32,768 bases of DNA from Bdellovibrionales bacterium. GTDB taxonomy: Bacteria; Bdellovibrionota_C; UBA2361; RFPC01. The notes under the pieces are model-generated. The model ran no database searches, was not told the DNA's origin, and saw nothing but the letters and a program-made list of their open reading frames with translations. Below, piece after piece: positions 3,699 to 12,846 of the stretch; position 1 is the first letter of the stretch, and each line of letters starts with the position of its first letter. The position numbers were made by a program, and so were the translations under genes. The stretch covers positions 1 through 32,768 of the forward strand of contig JAGRAO010000010.1 in the NCBI GenBank assembly GCA_020434565.1, read 5' to 3'.

Positions 3699-4307
3699 AT
3701 GGTTGCGCGAGCTTTTAAACAATTGAGCCAAGCCGGTTTTACTCTTTTTGAGGTCCTGGTTGCGTTTGCGATTTTTTCAGTCGTCATTACAGCGGCAACG
3801 GCCTCATTCATTACCTATCTGAAGACAAACAAAGCTGGGGAGGTGCGCTTCGAAGGCGCGCACGTTGCACAGACAGTCATTGACTCGCTCCGATTTCAAG
3901 ATGTCGAAGATATGCCATCGAGTGGGAGTGATTCTCCAGTTTCTATTACGTTGGACGATGGGCGAACATATCAGGCTACCGTGACCTATTGTTCGGATGC
4001 GAGTTTTTGCTCTTCGGATGAAGTTCGCCACATCAGTATCGTCGTCACATATAACGGCGATGTTGTCTATCGAACGGAGACAGTCTTCACAGGACTCGAA
4101 AAGGGATACGGGAGTACCAATTCAAGTTCGTCCTCGAGTTCCTCTTCCAGCTCATCCTCAAGCTCCTCGTCTTCCAGTTCATCTTCGAGCTCATCATCGA
4201 GCTCTTCGTCATCGTCGTCTTCAAGCTCATCATCGTCTAGTTCATCGAGCTCATCATCTTCTTCGAGTTCAAGCGGACAACAAAACTGCAAAACGTACAA
4301 ATGCTAG
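3699..4307 (+). CDS. PilV-like type IV minor prepilin with 51-residue poly-Ser tract
   Basis: The protein has 202 residues. The N-terminus has a short basic leader and the prepilin signature G^FTLFEVLVAFAIFSVV at residues 13-29. Prepilin peptidase should cut after Gly13, and Glu is at mature position 5. The globular part (about 40-135) resembles PilV/pseudopilins. Residues 142-192 are 51 uninterrupted serines, followed by a ten-residue tail GQQNCKTYKC with two cysteines. All six serine codons are mixed in the tract, so it is not a simple triplet expansion. Other Cys lie near residues 98 and 104. The role is probably as a minor pilin of a type IV pilus, with the Ser run acting as a flexible or O-glycosylated linker that displays the Cys tail (inference). 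The gene opens a four-gene operon and only a weak AAGAA precedes the ATG. Confidence 0.8.
   Translation: MVARAFKQLSQAGFTLFEVLVAFAIFSVVITAATASFITYLKTNKAGEVRFEGAHVAQTVIDSLRFQDVEDMPSSGSDSPVSITLDDGRTYQATVTYCSDASFCSSDEVRHISIVVTYNGDVVYRTETVFTGLEKGYGSTNSSSSSSSSSSSSSSSSSSSSSSSSSSSSSSSSSSSSSSSSSSSSSSSSSSSGQQNCKTYKC
4122..4274 (+). repeat. Poly-serine coding tract (51 codons)
   Basis: Fifty-one consecutive Ser codons drawn from TCA, TCG, TCC, TCT, AGC and AGT in irregular order. The codon mixing shows the protein sequence, not the DNA repeat, is what has been kept. The antisense strand reads as an acidic Asp/Glu-rich frame, which is an artefact of the composition. Confidence 0.95.
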
Positions 4308-4318
4308 GGAAGAACGAG

Positions 4319-4759
4319 ATGAGAGCACATGGCGACATAGGATTTAGTATTCTCGAGCTCGTCATCACAGTTGCGCTTATGGCTGTTCTCACCACCGTTG
4401 CGGTCAGCAATATCAAAGAGCTTGAGAACCCTCTTGCGGATGCTTCGTATCAGGTCTCAAGATTCATCCGTCTCGTTCGCGCAAGGGCAATTTCGCAGAC
4501 TATTGTGATTGTCATTCAGCCGAGCTCTACCTCTGAAATTGTTTCCTTTAGTTCAAACGATTGTGCCGGAACGCTTACTGCCATTGACGACCTCTCACTT
4601 TCACTGCCGGATGGCTCAAGCCTCACTTCGACCGATTGGTCAGCGTGTCTCAATCAGCGAGGCTTGTCGGATACGAATCTTGTCTTTCAGATCCAAGATA
4701 TTGAAGGAAAAACAAGAACGATTGAGCTTGCGCTTGGAGGAGGGGTTCAGATCCAATGA
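4319..4759 (+). CDS. GspH/FimT-like type IV pseudopilin
   Basis: The protein has 146 residues. The ATG at 4319 is preferred to the in-frame ATG at 4301 because AGGGAAG (4306-4312) is well placed for it and the leader becomes short (MRAHGDIG). The prepilin signature is G^FSILELVITVALMAVL with Glu at mature position 5. The rest fits the small GspH/FimT minor-pilin fold (SRFIRLVRARAISQ segment, then strands; two Cys in NDCAG and SACLN). It would be cleaved and N-methylated by prepilin peptidase and help initiate pilus or pseudopilus assembly. It follows the PilV-like gene after 11 bases and overlaps the next gene by ATGA (4756-4759), consistent with translational coupling. Confidence 0.8.
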   Translation: MRAHGDIGFSILELVITVALMAVLTTVAVSNIKELENPLADASYQVSRFIRLVRARAISQTIVIVIQPSSTSEIVSFSSNDCAGTLTAIDDLSLSLPDGSSLTSTDWSACLNQRGLSDTNLVFQIQDIEGKTRTIELALGGGVQIQ

Positions 4760-5676
4760 AAGACTCTCCACTTTTCCGCGTAACGAAGACTCGCTCATGG
4801 AGGCATTCCGGATTTACCATTATGGAACTTCTGGTTGCGGTGAGCATGACGTCGCTCATCATGTCTCTTCTCGTTGGAACAGTCTTGTTTATGCATGACG
4901 GCTACCACACTGACATGGTACGCACTCAAATAAACGGGAACCTCCGCTCAGGGCTTGACGTATTGTCAATGAACATCAGGCAAGCAGGAGAAAATCTCCA
5001 ATCAGCTTTTCCAGCAGTAGTCCTTGAAAATGGAACCGAAGGCGCCGCAGACGTTTTAAAGCTACGACGCAACAAAATTAAGGAAGTGCTTGCGCTGTGC
5101 CAAGATATCAGCGCAGGCACGACTTCGCTTCCTGTTTCCCGAAACGATCTCTCAGTTTCCCAATGTGTAAACTCAAACGTCCAAGGGAGCTGGGAAGCTT
5201 TTCAGACAGCTCGAAACGATGATGGCGGTAGTACCCGTATCTTTATCTTCGATCTCTCAAGCAGAGACGGTGAATTTCTCGACTATACAGCAGATAGCTT
5301 TGCTTCAAGCGTTTACACCTTAACGACCTCTGCCGTGTCAAACGCCTATTCAGCACTGACGACAGCTATCTACGTTCTCGAAGAGTATCGTTTCGCCGTA
5401 AATCTCGGGAACAACACTCTTACGCTTGAATTTGAAGGCGACGCGACTCAAGACAGCACCGTCGCTTTTGACGTGACGGACCTCGACGTGACCCTTCTTA
5501 TGGACGACGACACCGAGATCGAGGAGCTCCTCGAAGATGACGGCACTTATGACTGGAAAGACATTCAACTTGTAGAGGTAACGCTTTCTGGCTCGAGGGA
5601 GCGAAAGGGAATAGCTTATTCGACTTCACTCTCAGCAACTTATTTTCCTCGAAACGTGCTCTCATATGATGGGTAG
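4756..5676 (+). CDS. PilW-like type IV minor pilin
   Basis: The protein has 306 residues. It starts in an ATGA overlap with the preceding stop. A 19-residue basic leader ends in the signature G^FTIMELLVAVSMTSLIM (residues 19-35), with Glu at mature position 5. The following segment (NGNLRSGLDVLSMNIRQAG, about 61-79) is typical of the PilW family, where a long helix leads to a large strand-rich C-terminal domain. Cys in LCQDIS and QCVN could pair. PilW proteins are minor pilins needed to prime pilus assembly and, in some species, to anchor the tip protein. The C-terminus is acidic (DDDTEIEELLEDDGTYD). The order PilV-FimT-PilW-PilX matches minor-pilin operons of many proteobacteria. Confidence 0.8.
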   Translation: MKDSPLFRVTKTRSWRHSGFTIMELLVAVSMTSLIMSLLVGTVLFMHDGYHTDMVRTQINGNLRSGLDVLSMNIRQAGENLQSAFPAVVLENGTEGAADVLKLRRNKIKEVLALCQDISAGTTSLPVSRNDLSVSQCVNSNVQGSWEAFQTARNDDGGSTRIFIFDLSSRDGEFLDYTADSFASSVYTLTTSAVSNAYSALTTAIYVLEEYRFAVNLGNNTLTLEFEGDATQDSTVAFDVTDLDVTLLMDDDTEIEELLEDDGTYDWKDIQLVEVTLSGSRERKGIAYSTSLSATYFPRNVLSYDG

Positions 5677-5680
5677 AAGT

Positions 5681-7597
5681 ATGAAGAAGTTAAGACACAC
5701 CTCAGGTATTGCGCTCCTTTCGGTCCTCTTTCTGCTGACGTTAATGGCCAGTCTCCTCGGAGCCTACCTGATCGTCTCTCACACAGAACTCAAGATGGTG
5801 CGGAGTTCGCGAGATAGCCAGAGTGGGTTCAACGCAGCTGAGGCTGGATTGAACGTGCGGGCGGAGCAACTTCGCCAAGTCTTTCTTGACTACGCCCTTC
5901 CTTCTGGCGACTCACCAACTAGCGTTACCGATTGTGACGAAGGCGATCTTGGTTCGGGTGACTATGCCTGTTCGACTATAACACTCGGGAATAACCACAG
6001 CGCGACGACCTACGTAGAAGAGGACCCAGACAATCCCAGTACAACCGTAATTCCTCCCGGAGAAACGTTTGCAGGTTTGAGCGCCATTGAATATCGCTAC
6101 AACGTTCGTTCAGTTGGAAGAAACTCTCTTGGGAGCAACGAAGCGATACTTGATCTCACATTTCAAGCCCGTCGAGTGCCGCTCTTTCAATTCATGGTTT
6201 TCTTTGAAGAAGACCTTGAGATCTTCAACGGAGCGGTCATGACCCTGGACGGCCCAGTTCATACAAACGGAGACTTTTATGCTGGGACACAAGACGGCGG
6301 AACGACAAACTATACCGGGCAGGTCAGCGTCGCCGGCAACCTTTATAGAGGACTCAAGTCAGTGAGCAGCTGCTCAGGTTATTCGGGAACATCAAAGGTT
6401 TCGGACACACCAGATCGCTCCGCTCCAAACTACATAAACCTCCCCGCCTGTTCATCAAGTCGGTTTGAAATTGACGACGTCGAAGAGTGGCAGGGAAATA
6501 TCAATCTCGGAATTGAACCCGTCACCGTTCCTTCACCAGAGGACATGGATGCATTCAGTGACGGAGAATATTGGCAGCGAGCTGACCTACGACTCGCTCT
6601 TCGACTTGATGGATCAGGGAATGTGATCACGACGAATTCGCCAACTGGGGTAGAAGTCGTAAACGCTGCTGGTGTTACAGATACTGCTCTTACGACCCTC
6701 CTGCACTCGGCAAGCTGCCCGGGACTCATTTCAGAGGGCGCAAGTTCGTATGTCGTCGGAAATAGAAATTCAAGTGATGGCTCAGGAAACCGACTACGCC
6801 TTTACCGTGAGTATCAGATTTATCCAGCGACCAATAACTATCAACAGACAATTGAGATTGACATGCAGGGCTTACTGAACTGTATTCACGCGCAGCCGAG
6901 CATCATGGGCGGAAAACTTCTATCAGACGAAACCGAAGAGGGACTCGTTTTTTTCTTTGCAATAGATGGACCGTTAGCGGATGCCTCCCAGAACAATTAC
7001 TCCGTTCGAATTCGAAATGCGGCAACTCTCCAATCGAGCACCGCTGGAGCGCCCGACGTCGAGGGCTTGACGATCGTGACTGACCAAGGTCTTGTGGTGT
7101 GGGGAGACTACAACTCAAACGCTGCAGAGTGGGTTCCATCGGCACTGCTCGCTGACACCGCCTGGCTCCTTTCAAACAGTTGGGTGGATTCGGATTCAGA
7201 ACAAACAGATCGCTACTATCGAGATGGTAACGAAACGACAGTAAATGCGGCTGTGCTTTCCGGTATTCGGAGAACTGGTGGAATAAACGGAGAAGATGGC
7301 CAAGATCACGGCGAAGACACAAACGGTGGAGGCGCCATTAATGTTTTTCGATTTAACGAGTGGTTTCGGATCGGCTCGTCCGATATTCCAGATTTTCACT
7401 ATACTGGCTCGATGGTAAGTCTCGGAGCTCCCCGGAAATCACAATCGACCTGGGGACCTTTCACTTACTACAGCGCTCCAAACCGAGATTGGAGTTTTGA
7501 AGACCGTTTTAATGATCCAGAGAACCTTCCTCCAATGACTCCTGTGTTTGTTTATTTAAGGCAGGAACTGTTTGTGAGAGACTACGTCGTCGACTAG
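5681..7597 (+). CDS. Large PilX-like pilus assembly protein (PilX N-terminus + DUF4900-like body)
   Basis: The protein has 638 residues from ATG 5681; an ATG at 5666 inside the end of pilW is the alternative. The N-terminus SGIALLSVLFLLTLMASLLG is a PilX-type hydrophobic segment, followed by an AAEAGLN motif (near 55-61 from the upstream ATG) found in PilX and related pilus proteins. It is far longer than classical PilX (roughly 170-200 residues). The body contains FFEEDLEIFNGAVMTLDGPV and HTNGDFYAG, typical of DUF4900-like proteins that sit with pilin genes in deltaproteobacteria and others. The C-terminus (MTPVFVYLRQELFVRDYVVD) is soluble. It closes the pilin operon; 53 bases separate it from the next gene. 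It probably forms part of the pilus-tip or priming complex. Confidence 0.75.
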   Translation: MKKLRHTSGIALLSVLFLLTLMASLLGAYLIVSHTELKMVRSSRDSQSGFNAAEAGLNVRAEQLRQVFLDYALPSGDSPTSVTDCDEGDLGSGDYACSTITLGNNHSATTYVEEDPDNPSTTVIPPGETFAGLSAIEYRYNVRSVGRNSLGSNEAILDLTFQARRVPLFQFMVFFEEDLEIFNGAVMTLDGPVHTNGDFYAGTQDGGTTNYTGQVSVAGNLYRGLKSVSSCSGYSGTSKVSDTPDRSAPNYINLPACSSSRFEIDDVEEWQGNINLGIEPVTVPSPEDMDAFSDGEYWQRADLRLALRLDGSGNVITTNSPTGVEVVNAAGVTDTALTTLLHSASCPGLISEGASSYVVGNRNSSDGSGNRLRLYREYQIYPATNNYQQTIEIDMQGLLNCIHAQPSIMGGKLLSDETEEGLVFFFAIDGPLADASQNNYSVRIRNAATLQSSTAGAPDVEGLTIVTDQGLVVWGDYNSNAAEWVPSALLADTAWLLSNSWVDSDSEQTDRYYRDGNETTVNAAVLSGIRRTGGINGEDGQDHGEDTNGGGAINVFRFNEWFRIGSSDIPDFHYTGSMVSLGAPRKSQSTWGPFTYYSAPNRDWSFEDRFNDPENLPPMTPVFVYLRQELFVRDYVVD

Positions 7598-7650
7598 AGA
7601 ACCTTTTAGGGGTTTTCGAATAGAATGGGGTTCTTCATGATGTGGGCTGT

Positions 7651-8337
7651 ATGGGATCAGCCCTCTTCATAGTCACTCTTCTGCTTGCTTTCTGCAGCAT
7701 CGTCTACGAGCTTCTTCTCGGACAGCTCCTATCTGCTTTTCTTGGGAATACGATCGTTCGATACAGTGTCACTGTAGGGCTTTACATGAGTTCCATGGGC
7801 TTCGGTGCTCTGTTGCTTCCCAAGCGTTTTCAAACAGAATGCTTCGTTGGGCTTCTCAAAGTCGAGCTCGCTCTGAGCATTATCGGCTCGTCTGCGGCGA
7901 TGATCTTGCTTGCCTCAAACTTCATGGGACTTCAGGGCCTTCCATTCTCATTTCTTGCCCACTCTCTTATTGTTGTAATCGGCGTCCTCACTGGTTTTGA
8001 GATCCCGCTCCTCATTGCTATCGGAAATTCACTGAAACCACAAAGTGAAGCTCGTGTTCTCGGTGTAGACTATCTCGGAGCATTTCTCGGATCAGTACTC
8101 TTTGCCTTCTTTTTTTATCCTCACGTTGGGATCTTTTTAACAGCCTTCATTGTCGGACTCATAAACGCCTTGGCTGGGCTCTCTCTCTTTCGATTCTGGT
8201 CTCTTTTTCAAGAGACCGAACGAACTCAATCAAAATTTTTTCTTGTCGCCCTCCTGTTCATAGCGGTAGTTCTCCTGATTCTTATCGCAAACGGTGACTC
8301 AATCGAGCAACTTGGAACACGGATGTACCTCCAATGA
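7651..8337 (+). CDS. Membrane-only paralogue of the SpeE membrane domain
   Basis: The protein has 228 residues; a GTG at 7642 is an alternative start and neither has a good ribosome-binding site. It is almost all membrane segments, about six or seven. It matches the N-terminal half of the downstream membrane-anchored SpeE: 'CSIVYELLLGQLLSAFLGN' against 'CSIGYELLIAQSLALLASN', and 'GFEIPLLIAIGN..VDYLGAFLGS' against 'GIELPFLIEAGK..FDYFGSLVGG'. There is no Rossmann or aminopropyltransferase domain. The ORF stops with GDSIEQLGTRMYLQ, where the paralogue continues with 'GIEQFFLKRFY' towards its catalytic part. It may be a free-standing membrane subunit or the remnant of a truncated SpeE-like gene. 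It ends 6 bases from the convergent stop of the next gene. Confidence 0.75.
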   Translation: MGSALFIVTLLLAFCSIVYELLLGQLLSAFLGNTIVRYSVTVGLYMSSMGFGALLLPKRFQTECFVGLLKVELALSIIGSSAAMILLASNFMGLQGLPFSFLAHSLIVVIGVLTGFEIPLLIAIGNSLKPQSEARVLGVDYLGAFLGSVLFAFFFYPHVGIFLTAFIVGLINALAGLSLFRFWSLFQETERTQSKFFLVALLFIAVVLLILIANGDSIEQLGTRMYLQ

Positions 8338-8343
8338 TGCGGG

Positions 8344-10449
8344 CTAGCTTGCAGGCAAGGGCTCACCTCGATTCCACCGGATAACTGACCACACGTCAGA
8401 AAAACTATCGGTCCACGGCTCAACATCGGCTCTCTCCCGCACCTCGTCTCCTTCAAATCGCGCGTCTCTGAGGAGACGTTCGTTAGAAGTCACGAGCGTC
8501 CAGCTGACGGCACGAATTCCTCTCTCTCTCACTCCCTCGGATGATAGGAGAAGACAATGTTTCGAAAGAATCGCAGCATTTGCCGCGACTACAGGGAGGA
8601 GATCGGCGAGATTTGAATCAAAGAGGACGGCGAGAACCCCATCTGGCTTCAAATGCTTCCAGTACAATTCAAATGCCTCACGAGTCAGAAGATGCGTAGG
8701 GATAGAGTCAGAGTTGAACGCATCGAGAATCACAATATCAGCCTGAAACGGTCCATTTTCAGCCAACGCATGTTCAAGCCCGAGCCGTCCATCTGCGAGT
8801 GTAATTCGTTCAGCTACCGGACTCTTGGAGAGATATGTAAAGTACTGTGTCGCGATATTTACGACGGCAGGATTGATTTCAAAGTACTGAAGAAAATCTC
8901 CTCTGCGCAAATACGATGAGATTGCTCCAGTTCCAAGACCAACGGCGACTACTTGTATGGGCTCGACCTCGAAGGATCCTTCCTCTGCGAAACGGTTGTA
9001 AAAGGCAAAAAGCTCGCCAATTCCACTTAATGGAGAGTAATAGGAGACGGGAGATGTCGCTCCCCTTCCATCTCTATCAAAAATCTGAGCACCGTGTTCA
9101 ATCGTGCCATGTTGCAGAACTCGAACAGTAGCTCCGTCATCGATCTCTCGTTCATAGACGATTGATCGTCCGTAAAAATTCCGCTTTCCATAAAGCACTC
9201 GCTCTTTCGAGGAGATCTGCTCGAAGCTAAGAAAGGAATAGCCCACAACTCCCATCAGTCCCAGGACAATAAGCATCCCTCGCGAGAAGCTCGCAAACTT
9301 CCCCAGGCCATCCTTGCCCATACAAAATAGAGCGAGAAGGTATACGAGCAAGAGACCGATACTCCTCTCATGAAAAGAGTTAAAGAGGTTCGGAGCGATC
9401 ACTGAAACAAAGACTCCTCCTAAACTCCCCCCGAAGGCAATCACAACGTAAAAGGTTGTCAACTTTGACTGCTTTGGCTTTGAAGACGCCAGCTCGCCGT
9501 GCAAGAAAGTACAAAAAACAAAGAGGCTGCTGAGCGAGATGAGTATCTCCTGCCACAGAGCAAGCGAGGCGACTCGGGCGAGGGAAAATCCCCAAAGAAC
9601 AAGTGCAAGGAGCACAAGGCAGCGAAATGAATTCGAGAGATGAACTCCCTCGATCGAAAAGGCGAAAACATAAGTCAAAAGGTACAATCCCAAGGGCACG
9701 ACCCAGAAAAGCGGAAATGGTGCGATATCTATAGTAATATACTGGCTGATACTTAAGAGGATAACGGTTCCAGTAAACGACAGAATAATCCAATATCCCA
9801 CTAGACGGAGGCGAAGAGGTTGAGCCTTTTCTCTCAAGTGCTCCACAAAAGGGTTTTGCCGAAAAGCGAGAAGACAGAGAACCGAAACCGTAGCGAGAAA
9901 AAAGAGCAGATATCCGAATACCCAGAGTGCTCTCTGATTCTCAAGAGAGAAGAAGCGCTCAAGGTAAAGTGGATAAATCGCCAAGCCAAAGAGAGAAGCA
10001 GCATTCGAAAGAGAATAGAACGTGTACGGCTTACCATCTCCTACAAGCGTTCCCCACCAATGCTGAAGAAGAGGGCTCGTCGCGCAAAGGAGAACACTCG
10101 GGGCACCGACTTCCACAATCAACAGGAAGAGTAAGCGAACAAGAGGCTTTGAGGACTCATCGGTTCCAAGATTGCTTGTGGATCCAATCGATAACCACAA
10201 AAGAGTGAGCGAGAGCAGCACACCGTGAATGACGAGTTGATGCTTCTGACTTTGGACTTTGCTTAAGAGAAAGGCGTAGGAATAGCCGCCGAGCAAGACA
10301 AGCTGAAAGAACATGAGGCACGTTATCCACACCCCAGCCGCTCCTCCAAACTCAGGAAGAAGAGATTTGGCGATCATCGGCTGGATAACAAAGAAGAGAC
10401 AAGAGCTTAGAGCGATAGACGCTGCCCAACTCACTCGTTTTACTGACAT
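8344..10449 (-). CDS. Fused multi-pass membrane / spermidine-synthase-like protein (MFS-SpdSyn type)
   Basis: The protein has 701 residues. The ATG at 10449 is chosen over an upstream TTG/ATG extension (to 10557) because the N-terminus then begins just before the first helix. GGATGG lies 4-9 bases upstream. The first 420 or so residues are membrane helices with the family pattern FFVIQPMIAKSLLPEFGG, then AAGVWITCLMFFQLVLLGGY. The last 260 are a SAM-type Rossmann domain: VVAVGLGTGAISSYL (motif I), YFEINPAVV, then VILDAFNSDSIPTHLLTREAF. This is the layout of proteins annotated 'fused MFS/spermidine synthase'. The nucleotide motif is GLGTG rather than the GGGDG of true aminopropyltransferases, so the substrate is uncertain. 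It faces speD (start-to-start 131 bases, divergent) and is convergent with the membrane-only paralogue. Confidence 0.85.
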   Translation of the reverse strand: MSVKRVSWAASIALSSCLFFVIQPMIAKSLLPEFGGAAGVWITCLMFFQLVLLGGYSYAFLLSKVQSQKHQLVIHGVLLSLTLLWLSIGSTSNLGTDESSKPLVRLLFLLIVEVGAPSVLLCATSPLLQHWWGTLVGDGKPYTFYSLSNAASLFGLAIYPLYLERFFSLENQRALWVFGYLLFFLATVSVLCLLAFRQNPFVEHLREKAQPLRLRLVGYWIILSFTGTVILLSISQYITIDIAPFPLFWVVPLGLYLLTYVFAFSIEGVHLSNSFRCLVLLALVLWGFSLARVASLALWQEILISLSSLFVFCTFLHGELASSKPKQSKLTTFYVVIAFGGSLGGVFVSVIAPNLFNSFHERSIGLLLVYLLALFCMGKDGLGKFASFSRGMLIVLGLMGVVGYSFLSFEQISSKERVLYGKRNFYGRSIVYEREIDDGATVRVLQHGTIEHGAQIFDRDGRGATSPVSYYSPLSGIGELFAFYNRFAEEGSFEVEPIQVVAVGLGTGAISSYLRRGDFLQYFEINPAVVNIATQYFTYLSKSPVAERITLADGRLGLEHALAENGPFQADIVILDAFNSDSIPTHLLTREAFELYWKHLKPDGVLAVLFDSNLADLLPVVAANAAILSKHCLLLSSEGVRERGIRAVSWTLVTSNERLLRDARFEGDEVRERADVEPWTDSFSDVWSVIRWNRGEPLPAS

Positions 10450-10580
10450 TTTGCCATCCGACCCACTATAGAACGACGGTAAACTGACTTGGAGCTTGAA
10501 ACAAGCTGCTCTGATTGTTCGAAGAGCTCTACACGATAGAGCGGAATCGTGAATCAAAACCCGGACATCTTAAAGGAATC

Positions 10581-10967
10581 ATGGGCTTTCGTGAATCTCC
10601 TCACAATCAACCAATGGAATTTGTCCACCTGCTTGGGCTCCATACTCTCGTTGAGTATGTCGGCGGGAATCGAGAAGTCCTCGCTCGAGCCGACGCACTT
10701 GAGCCGATTCTTTTAACAGCGGTTGAAATCTGTGGCGCGACGTATGTCGATCACCGGATAAACCAGTTTTCTCCGTACGGGGCAAGTGGTGTAATCCTTA
10801 TTGCTGAGTCACACATGAGCTTCCACAGTTGGCCAGAACACAACTACATGGCTCTTGATCTCTTCACATGTAGTTCGACTATGGATCCAACAGAAGCCAT
10901 CGACTACATAGCAGAGAAAATAGAAGCACAGACGTTCCACACGCGTGTCCTTCAACGAGGCTATTAG
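10581..10967 (+). CDS. speD: S-adenosylmethionine decarboxylase (pyruvoyl, prokaryotic short form)
   Basis: The protein has 128 residues from ATG 10581, preceded by AAAGGA; TTG/ATG alternatives give extra or fewer residues at the N-terminus. It makes decarboxylated SAM, the aminopropyl donor for spermidine. The signature GASGVILIAESHMSFHSWPE holds the self-cleavage site. Ser77 (in AES) becomes the pyruvoyl group, and His82 and Cys97 (DLFTC) are the processing/catalytic residues. Their spacing (5 and 20) equals that of the Thermotoga enzyme (Ser63, His68, Cys83). The length fits the short (SpeH-like) class. It lies 25 bases before the speE start used here; an upstream GTG at 10945 would make the two genes overlap. 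Co-expression is therefore very likely. Confidence 0.93.
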   Translation: MGFRESPHNQPMEFVHLLGLHTLVEYVGGNREVLARADALEPILLTAVEICGATYVDHRINQFSPYGASGVILIAESHMSFHSWPEHNYMALDLFTCSSTMDPTEAIDYIAEKIEAQTFHTRVLQRGY

Positions 10968-10992
10968 CTCTCTCCTCTCTTATGGCTCCCCT

Positions 10993-12846
10993 ATGAATAC
11001 GGCCCCGAAAAGCCTCATCGCCGAAGTAAAGAGCAATTGGATTCTCCTGCTGTTAACCCTCGTAGTTGCTGCATGCAGCATTGGGTATGAACTCCTCATA
11101 GCTCAGTCGCTCGCTCTCCTCGCCTCAAACGGGGTGATTTGGTACAGCGTTGTCATCGGCTGCTTCCTTCTCGGATTGGGTCTTGGCTCATTTTGCGCTG
11201 ACATACTGATGAAGAAGGTGGGAGAATTAGACCCTGCTATCTGGAGAAAACTCGTTCTCGTCGAGCTGCTTCTCTCAGTGGCTGGTTTTCTTGCCGTCCC
11301 TACCCTTCACGGTGCTCACTCCGTCTACAGTTTTCTCGACTATTGGAACTATACAAACATCGGGCTCACCCTCTTTTTTGGAACGGCGCTCGGGGCAACT
11401 CTCTTCATAGGGCTCCTTACTGGTATTGAGCTCCCCTTCCTCATCGAAGCAGGAAAGCATTCCTCCCCTCAGCCAAGGACGACGAACCTTGTCCTTGCCT
11501 TTGACTATTTCGGCTCTCTCGTTGGAGGACTTTTATTCGCCCTCTATCTTGTGCCCAACTTCTCGACACTTTTTATCGGAACTGCAATTGCTTCAATCAA
11601 TCTCGCTGCTGCAATGGCTATCGCAGCTCTCTTCTGTAGGAAAAAAGTCTTTCTGAGAGCTGTGACTATCGGGGCAGCACTCATGACTGCTTACGGTTCT
11701 GTCTTTTTGTATCAAGCAGGTATTGAGCAATTTTTTCTCAAGCGATTTTACTGCTACAGACTCTTAAGTCGATCTCTTTCTCATTTCTTCTCTCTCGGAA
11801 ACGAATACCCAGATATCCTGCGAGTCCGCTCACCGTATCAACGAATCGATCTCTTGCACGATATGGAAGGAGACGGGACAGATCCATTTGTTCAGGGTAT
11901 CTCATCAAAATTTACGCAGAATCCTGACTGGCCTCACAACTATCTTCTCTTCCTCAACGGTGATTGGCAGTTCCACTCAAATCATGAAGAGGTGTATCAC
12001 GAATGGTTTGCTCATGTGCCGATCATAAACACCGGCAGAGTTCCCAAAAACGTTCTGGTCCTTGGCGGGGGTGACGGATTGCTCATTCGAGAGCTGTTAC
12101 GCTATCCGGAGATTCAAACGATAACCCACATAGACCTCGATAGAGCACTCATTGAACTTGCAAGTACGAATGAGATCTTTCTCAGACTGAACGGAGGAGC
12201 CCTTTCGGATTCAAGGGTAAAAAGGGTCATCACTGACGGCTTGCAGTTCGTGAGAAAGAGCCGCGAATCTTTTGATGCAGTTTATATCGATTTTCCAACT
12301 CCGACCGACTATGACCTCTCGAAACTGTATAGCCGAGAGTTTTACACTTTTGTTCGCAGGAGACTCACTCCTACTGGTTATATGGTGTTCGACTCAGTGA
12401 GTACCGGGGCGTTTTCAGCTCCAGATGCCAATGGGAATCAAGCGTTTCGAGATGACAACCGCTGGCTCGATTTTGCGAACACGCTCAACGCTGCCGGGTT
12501 TACACGGCTTGTACCGTTCAACTCATTTCTTGGATTCGATCAATCGAAGGCGATTGAAATGGCCAAGTCCGCCTATTCAGCAGAGGATGCTGCGTTCCGT
12601 TTGCAAGTGTATGTTCTTCAACGCCAACAAGGATTTATTATGGCGGGATTGCCCGGGACTCTCTTCGGCCATCCATACCGAAAACCTCCCGGTCACGATC
12701 TCTATGCTTTAAATGACCTCCGCTATAAATTGTCGTTTAAAGCGCAGTATCCTATGCCTGAGAAAATCAATTACTCTCTCGTAAACTCAGTCTTCCGGCC
12801 CCGTCTCGCGATAATGCCGATTTGGTACGCCAGGTTGCCTTTCTAG
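10993..12846 (+). CDS. speE: Membrane-anchored polyamine aminopropyltransferase (spermidine synthase)
   Basis: The protein has 617 residues from ATG 10993; an overlapping GTG at 10945 is possible. It transfers the aminopropyl group of decarboxylated SAM to putrescine or another amine. About seven membrane helices fill residues 15-245. The catalytic part follows: LNGDWQFHSNHEEVYHEWFA (near 322-340), VLVLGGGDGLLIREL (GGGDG 358-362), IDLDRALIE, ITDGLQF, and YIDFPTPTDYDLSKLYSREF. The last fits the 'vDlPDP...LY..eFY' loop of membrane-fused SpeE proteins, with Asp as catalytic base. Acid-pair and YHE motifs are kept, so activity is expected. The C-terminus (FRPRLAIMPIWYARLPF) looks complete. It follows speD directly. 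Amine specificity cannot be read from the sequence. Confidence 0.9.
   Translation: MNTAPKSLIAEVKSNWILLLLTLVVAACSIGYELLIAQSLALLASNGVIWYSVVIGCFLLGLGLGSFCADILMKKVGELDPAIWRKLVLVELLLSVAGFLAVPTLHGAHSVYSFLDYWNYTNIGLTLFFGTALGATLFIGLLTGIELPFLIEAGKHSSPQPRTTNLVLAFDYFGSLVGGLLFALYLVPNFSTLFIGTAIASINLAAAMAIAALFCRKKVFLRAVTIGAALMTAYGSVFLYQAGIEQFFLKRFYCYRLLSRSLSHFFSLGNEYPDILRVRSPYQRIDLLHDMEGDGTDPFVQGISSKFTQNPDWPHNYLLFLNGDWQFHSNHEEVYHEWFAHVPIINTGRVPKNVLVLGGGDGLLIRELLRYPEIQTITHIDLDRALIELASTNEIFLRLNGGALSDSRVKRVITDGLQFVRKSRESFDAVYIDFPTPTDYDLSKLYSREFYTFVRRRLTPTGYMVFDSVSTGAFSAPDANGNQAFRDDNRWLDFANTLNAAGFTRLVPFNSFLGFDQSKAIEMAKSAYSAEDAAFRLQVYVLQRQQGFIMAGLPGTLFGHPYRKPPGHDLYALNDLRYKLSFKAQYPMPEKINYSLVNSVFRPRLAIMPIWYARLPF

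What the first reader, a model, noticed from the sequence alone, without database searches (positions are those of the whole stretch)
7651..12846. Polyamine island with three SpeE-related membrane proteins around one SpeD
A membrane-only paralogue, a 701-residue fused membrane/spermidine-synthase-like protein with GLGTG in place of GGGDG, SpeD, and a catalytic membrane-anchored SpeE are packed in 5.2 kb. This suggests polyamine synthesis coupled to membrane passage, or a modified product, not plain cytosolic spermidine synthesis.
Basis: partly seen in the sequence, partly recalled or inferred. Interest (0 to 1): 0.6.

Follow-up and report, generated by a model that had tools for sequence, protein, structure and literature searches.

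The report
Conserved membrane aminopropyltransferase operon with SpeD
Four neighbouring genes form a membrane-bound version of the spermidine-making machinery whose three core parts have stayed together in bacteria of several phyla, probably adding the aminopropyl group of polyamine synthesis to something other than ordinary putrescine.

Summary
All four genes are there: A, a 228-231 aa membrane-only protein; B, a 701 aa MFS/spermidine-synthase-like fusion with GLGTG; C, SpeD; D, a membrane-anchored SpeE with GGGDG.

A, C and D form an ancient module. A scan with A's peptides found 26 complete A genes; all 26 lie beside a D-type 7TM-SpeE and 24 have SpeD adjacent or fused (Bdellovibrionota, Omnitrophota, Verrucomicrobiota, Pseudomonadota, Myxococcota, Chloroflexota). 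In Bacteriovoracaceae SpeD and A are one protein. The window's genome has a second A-C-D copy. B is optional; the same four genes recur in three related genera and, in another order, in three marine gammaproteobacteria.

D keeps the decarboxylated-AdoMet site and catalytic Asp, but the acceptor-binding Asp is lost in 20 of 26. DUF350, partner of the known SpeD/7TM-SpeE clusters, is absent from this genome and rare where A is present. Putrescine and probably homospermidine are made elsewhere in the genome; no cytosolic SpeE was found.

Best reading: SpeD feeds a membrane A+D aminopropyltransferase acting on a non-standard acceptor, with A in the place of DUF350. It is a new variant of a published kind (Li et al. 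2019). The acceptor is unknown.

The parts
7642..8337 (+). Gene A: membrane-only paralogue of the 7TM domain of 7TM-SpeE (ATG at 7651 gives 228 aa)
   Evidence: NF002956 E 4e-41, profile 21-234/522 only; 54-56% identical orthologues in three related genera; 26 complete A genes in the genome-contig scan, all beside D
8344..10449 (-). Gene B: MFS-fold membrane domain fused to a spermidine-synthase-like domain, GLGTG at residues 504-508; optional partner
   Evidence: NF037959 40.2 bits; no Asp/Glu at the dcAdoMet position in 11 members; AF2 pLDDT 81, pTM 0.85; Foldseek to spermidine synthases (1.4e-6) and MFS transporters NorC (3.0e-5), VMAT2, sialin
10450..10580 (.). 131-bp divergent intergenic region between B and C-D, the expected promoter region (no strong sigma-70 match found)
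   Evidence: coordinates
10581..10967 (+). Gene C: SpeD, class 1b AdoMet decarboxylase, 128 aa from ATG 10581
   Evidence: TIGR03330 117.5 bits; aligns to T. maritima AdoMetDC 1vr7 at 4e-24 with the pyruvoyl Ser, His and Cys present
10945..12846 (+). Gene D: 7TM-SpeE; likely start ATG 10993; seven TM helices at residues 32-255, aminopropyltransferase domain about 290-633
   Evidence: PF01564 88.8 bits; NF002956 280 bits; Foldseek to polyamine aminopropyltransferases, 1uir E 5.5e-12; AF2 pLDDT 91.3, pTM 0.87
12289..12300 (+). D-F-P-T motif of D (residues 449-452): catalytic Asp kept, canonical acceptor-binding Asp at +3 replaced by Thr
   Evidence: canonical 7TM-SpeE have D-L-P-D

Best explanation
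SpeD (C) makes decarboxylated AdoMet. D, a SpeE domain on a 7TM anchor, transfers the aminopropyl group at the inner face of the membrane. A, a 7TM paralogue without a catalytic domain, is the dedicated membrane partner of D; the two would form a hetero-oligomeric membrane domain that holds or presents the acceptor and recruits SpeD. The acceptor is probably not free putrescine bound in the classical way; a membrane-associated or larger amine is more likely. A takes the place held by the small membrane protein DUF350 in the known SpeD/7TM-SpeE clusters. B is an accessory MFS/SpeE-like fusion in some lineages that probably does not bind decarboxylated AdoMet. Shown: gene content, conservation, linkage, fusion, catalytic residues, loss of the acceptor Asp, absence of DUF350. 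Inferred: the A-D complex, the acceptor, and B's role.
For: Linkage: 26 of 26 complete A genes from an A-only peptide scan lie beside a D gene, and 24 of 26 have SpeD adjacent or fused. SpeD-A is one 356-aa protein in Bacteriovoracaceae. The own genome has a second A-C-D copy on C376. A, D and SpeD distance matrices agree (r 0.74-0.85, permuted maxima 0.41-0.51), and the tree separates A and D deeply. Chemistry: in 26 D proteins the Gln, Tyr-His, GxGD, Asp431 and catalytic Asp449 positions are invariant, but the acceptor Asp at +3 is kept in only 6 (window: Thr); canonical 7TM-SpeEs keep D-L-P-D. SpeD Ser and His are invariant. Separate polyamine route: SpeA, agmatinase and a DHS-like enzyme on C44. 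Ordinary ~300-aa SpeE coexists with the module in 7 of 21 genomes. DUF350 is absent from G000, G002, G003, G005, G008 and G034, is found in the relatives carrying the canonical cluster, and in only 2 of 21 module genomes.
Against: No experiment and no complex prediction. 6 of 26 D proteins keep the acceptor Asp. 14 of 21 module genomes show no ordinary SpeE, so D could be their spermidine synthase. Distance-matrix agreement is also expected from shared inheritance. Two A-D pairs lack an adjacent SpeD. No conserved neighbour reveals a substrate.
Confidence: 0.5

Rival explanations
1. Synthesis coupled to transport: D makes spermidine or a related triamine at the membrane and the A/D 7TM domains (and B's MFS domain) move the product or substrate across the membrane.
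For: Glutamates E23, E75 and E120 of A match E49, E107 and E162 of D and are invariant or nearly so in A, D and canonical 7TM-SpeE; B's membrane half has an MFS-transporter fold.
Against: The 7TM domain has no known transporter homologue in the Foldseek list shown; the acceptor Asp is mostly lost; B is absent from most modules.
Confidence: 0.2
2. Protein or lipid modification: the module aminopropylates the N-terminus of exported proteins or a lipid head group, by analogy with the fungal 7TM N-terminal histidine methyltransferase; in this class the target could be type IV pilins, whose genes precede A.
For: The fungal 7TM-SpeE-like enzyme modifies protein N-termini (PMC10349129); minor pilin genes lie directly upstream of A in the window, G003, G005 and G041.
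Against: Pilin linkage is not seen at the own second module or in other phyla; the fungal enzyme lacks the Asp that D keeps, so it uses AdoMet, not decarboxylated AdoMet.
Confidence: 0.15
3. Ordinary spermidine synthesis by a membrane-anchored SpeE; A is a non-essential anchor and the 7TM domain only localises the enzyme.
For: No cytosolic SpeE found in the own genome or in 14 of 21 module genomes; the dcAdoMet site and catalytic Asp are intact; putrescine can be made.
Against: A is conserved at 54-56% across genera with invariant intramembrane residues and never occurs without D; 7 of 21 genomes also have normal SpeE; a homospermidine-type route is present.
Confidence: 0.15

Closest known systems
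SpeD + membrane-fused spermidine-synthase-like gene clusters with DUF350 (Li et al. 2019, Biochem J 476:2579, not held here; related 7TM-spermine-synthase/PspA/DUF350 operons in PMC11237479)
   Same: SpeD linked to a 7TM-SpeE of the PRK03612 family; aminopropylation of another substrate has been proposed
   Different: No DUF350, band-7 or DUF4178 beside the window's module; a membrane-only 7TM paralogue (A) is always present instead; D mostly lacks the acceptor Asp. The canonical version occurs in the same class (L160, L162, L163)
NF002956/PRK03612 polyamine aminopropyltransferase (single-gene 7TM-SpeE)
   Same: Domain order, 7TM motifs, GGGDG and catalytic Asp of D
   Different: D scores 280 bits against a 472 cut-off; A is the membrane half alone
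NF037959 fused MFS/spermidine synthase (gene B)
   Same: MFS-like fold plus SpeE-like domain; above the cut-off by 0.2 bit
   Different: Linkage to an A-SpeD-D module
Fungal 7TM N-terminal histidine methyltransferase NHMT (PMC10349129)
   Same: Seven TM helices followed by a SpeE-like domain
   Different: NHMT has Ile where dcAdoMet-users have Asp/Glu; D keeps Asp; homology of the two 7TM domains not tested

Membership tests
7TM-SpeE, PRK03612/NF002956 (gene D) | 7TM domain followed by an SpeE domain | tested here: met
   AF2 model, seven helices 32-255 plus SpeE fold
7TM-SpeE, PRK03612/NF002956 (gene D) | Whole-protein score above the NCBIfam equivalog cut-off (472 bits) | tested here: not met
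   279.8 bits
7TM-SpeE, PRK03612/NF002956 (gene D) | Acceptor-site D-x-x-D motif | tested here: not met
   Window D-F-P-T; Asp at +3 in 6 of 26 module D proteins; canonical ones D-L-P-D
Spermidine synthase / aminopropyltransferase (gene D) | GxG(D/E)G and catalytic Asp | tested here: met
   D377 and D449 in 26 of 26
Spermidine synthase / aminopropyltransferase (gene D) | Makes spermidine from putrescine | not testable with these tools
   Needs an enzyme assay
Spermidine synthase / aminopropyltransferase (gene B) | Asp/Glu in GxG(D/E)G | tested here: not met
   Absent in 11 of 11 family members aligned; the requirement is stated in PMC10349129
MFS_SpdSyn, NF037959 (gene B) | Score above cut-off, MFS fold plus SpeE-like domain | tested here: met
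   40.2 against 40 bits; Foldseek
SpeD class 1b AdoMet decarboxylase (gene C) | Family score and Ser/His/Cys self-processing and catalytic residues | tested here: met
   117.5 against 75.65 bits; residues
SpeD neofunctionalised to ODC/ADC | Diagnostic substitutions of PMC10407285 Figure 8 | tested here: inconclusive
   The WPE motif typical of SpeD is present, but the figure itself was not readable
Li et al. SpeD/7TM-SpeE/DUF350 cluster | DUF350 linked to the pair | tested here: not met
   No PF03994 in G000
NHMT-type 7TM methyltransferase | No acidic residue in the GxGxG motif | tested here: not met
   D has GGGDG

The most novel reading that the evidence does not exclude
A-SpeD-D is a previously undescribed hetero-oligomeric membrane aminopropyltransferase in which a catalytically empty 7TM paralogue is an obligate partner, and which uses decarboxylated AdoMet to modify a protein, lipid or other non-polyamine acceptor at the membrane.
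Probability: 0.3. Interest if true: 0.75.

Novelty: new variant of a known kind. Interest (0 to 1): 0.5.

Why it matters
What SpeD and membrane-fused SpeE-like proteins do outside spermidine synthesis is an open question. A three-gene module with a catalytically empty membrane partner, a natural SpeD fusion, and a cultured host (marine gammaproteobacterium HTCC2080) gives a defined system for finding the acceptor, and a marker (gene A) that separates this version from the DUF350 version.

Tried and rejected
(1) Gene A as a decayed fragment of a duplicate SpeE: rejected; it is conserved at 54-56% in three related genera and 26 complete copies are adjacent to D. (2) GLGTG as a peculiarity of this protein: rejected; family-wide. 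(3) A type IV pilin target as the main reading: demoted; pilin synteny is confined to four related genomes and absent at the own second module. (4) A conserved neighbour naming the substrate: none found; an HGSNAT-like acyltransferase precedes the module in L039, and a similar membrane protein without a Pfam hit lies near it in five Bacteriovoracaceae loci and in L073, too patchy to use. (5) DUF350 in the own genome: none. (7) Li et al. 2019 is not held, so its content beyond its citation in PMC11237479 rests on my memory of the abstract. (8) Promoter and terminator scans were at background.

Full report
OBSERVATION. A is 7642-8337 (+); a scan against NCBIfam matches only the membrane half of PRK03612 polyamine aminopropyltransferase. 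B is 8344-10449 (-), 701 aa, an MFS/spermidine-synthase-type fusion (NF037959) with GLGTG. C is a class 1b SpeD. D is a 7TM-SpeE with GGGDG. A and B converge (6 bp apart); B and C-D diverge across 131 bp; C and D are tightly coupled.

CONSERVATION. A search of 58 genomes with B found the full set A / B / SpeD / D in two members of the same family (G003, G005) and one of another family in the class (G041), with A convergent to B and B divergent from D. In G041 SpeD lies on the other side of D. An A alignment used on the GTDB-based genome collection gave 41 loci: 26 complete A-only genes, one truncated at a contig end, and 14 single-gene 7TM-SpeEs. All 26 complete A-only genes lie beside a D-type 7TM-SpeE, and 24 have SpeD between, next to, or fused to them. 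The organisms include MAGs labelled Bdellovibrionales, Bacteriovorax, Omnitrophota, Verrucomicrobiales, Legionellaceae, Pseudohongiella, Luminiphilus, Deltaproteobacteria (Myxococcota) and Dehalococcoidales, and the cultured strain HTCC2080. In HTCC2080, Luminiphilus and Pseudohongiella the order is B-A-SpeD-D on one strand, so B's association recurs in a different layout. In five Bacteriovoracaceae loci SpeD and A are one 356-aa protein followed by D. The own genome has a second A-SpeD-D copy on contig C376, cut by the contig end inside D.

EVOLUTION. A tree of the 7TM domains groups A, D and single-gene proteins with the fewest label changes possible (2); the main A clade of 21 has support 95/93, and the D set lies on one side of a branch with 93/87. 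The A proteins of Bacteriovoracaceae and two Myxococcota fall outside the main A clade. A and D are therefore old paralogues. Pairwise distances of A, D and SpeD agree across loci (r 0.74 to 0.85), as expected if the set travels as a unit, though common descent alone would also give this.

CHEMISTRY. In 26 D proteins the residues corresponding to dcAdoMet binding and catalysis are invariant (Q342, Y351-H352, G374/G376/D377, D431, D449). The second Asp of D-x-x-D, which in spermidine synthases holds the acceptor amine (established knowledge of the SpeE family), is retained in 6 of 26; in the window it is Thr452. Five canonical 7TM-SpeEs examined keep D-L-P-D. D's model is confident (pLDDT 91.3, pTM 0.87) and matches only aminopropyltransferase structures among the listed hits. 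SpeD keeps its self-processing Ser and His in all 25 sequences examined and Cys in 23. B's family has no acidic residue at the dcAdoMet position in 11 of 11 members; its model (pLDDT 81) resembles spermidine synthases and, in the membrane part, MFS transporters.

POLYAMINE CONTEXT. The own genome carries, on C44, SpeA, agmatinase and a deoxyhypusine-synthase-like protein in a row. DHS-like proteins are a known bacterial homospermidine route (PMC10407285); this one scores below the equivalog cut-offs, so homospermidine is probable, not shown. No cytosolic SpeE was found in this 84%-complete assembly. Among 21 module-bearing genomes of other lineages, 7 also carry an ordinary SpeE of about 300 aa and 14 do not. 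The module is therefore not simply a stand-in for SpeE, although it could be one in some hosts.

KNOWN RELATIVES. SpeD linked to a membrane-fused SpeE-like protein and DUF350 is published (Li et al. 2019, not held; cited in PMC11237479, which describes 7TM-spermine-synthase/PspA/DUF350 operons and suggests aminopropylation of other substrates). That canonical type occurs in this class too (L160, L162, L163: band-7, DUF4178, DUF350, 7TM-SpeE, with SpeD nearby in L160 and L163). DUF350 is present in the relatives with the canonical type and absent from G000, G002, G003, G005, G008 and G034, which carry only the A module; G037 and G041 have both types and have DUF350. Of 21 further module genomes only 2 have DUF350. 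I read A as filling the membrane-partner position of DUF350; this is inference from a presence/absence pattern. I found no description of the membrane-only paralogue or of the SpeD-A fusion in the held literature.

MECHANISM. Shown: linkage, natural fusion, catalytic competence by residues, altered acceptor site, membrane topology by prediction. Inferred: A and D form one membrane complex fed by SpeD; the acceptor is not classically bound putrescine. Three membrane glutamates invariant or nearly so in A, D and canonical proteins (E23/E49, E75/E107, E120/E162) suggest a cation-binding or amine-binding path shared by the whole 7TM family, so transport remains a live rival. A has an invariant Arg40 where D has Trp66 in 25 of 27 sequences, which would suit two non-equivalent halves of a hetero-oligomer.

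VERDICT. A real, conserved and apparently undescribed arrangement: a new variant of a known kind. Function unproven; interest moderate.

Noticed in passing
window 3699-7597 (+): Four minor-pilin-type genes (N_methyl and PilX_N motifs) run directly into gene A; the pilW-like and pilX-like genes also precede A in G003, G005 and G041, but not at the own second module or in other phyla.
   Followed up: partly
window 4128-4262: The pilV-like protein carries a long poly-serine stretch, encoded by imperfect 12/24/39-bp TCA/AGC repeats.
   Followed up: no
G000 contig C44 18445-22248 (L152 4446-8249): SpeA-agmatinase-DHS-like row, a probable homospermidine route, common in the class.
   Followed up: partly
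L052, L054, L065, L067, L070 (about 8640-9711): SpeD fused to the 7TM membrane-only protein in Bacteriovoracaceae, with W-to-Y in the usual HTWPE motif.
   Followed up: partly
L039 7916-8953; L052 7504-8631; L073 12559-13644: HGSNAT-like membrane acyltransferase directly upstream of A in L039; a similar membrane protein without a Pfam hit directly upstream of the SpeD-A fusion in Bacteriovoracaceae and near the module in L073.
   Followed up: no
L040 7788-8171 and L042 9690-10073: The SpeD of HTCC2080 and Luminiphilus has Ser in place of the catalytic Cys.
   Followed up: no
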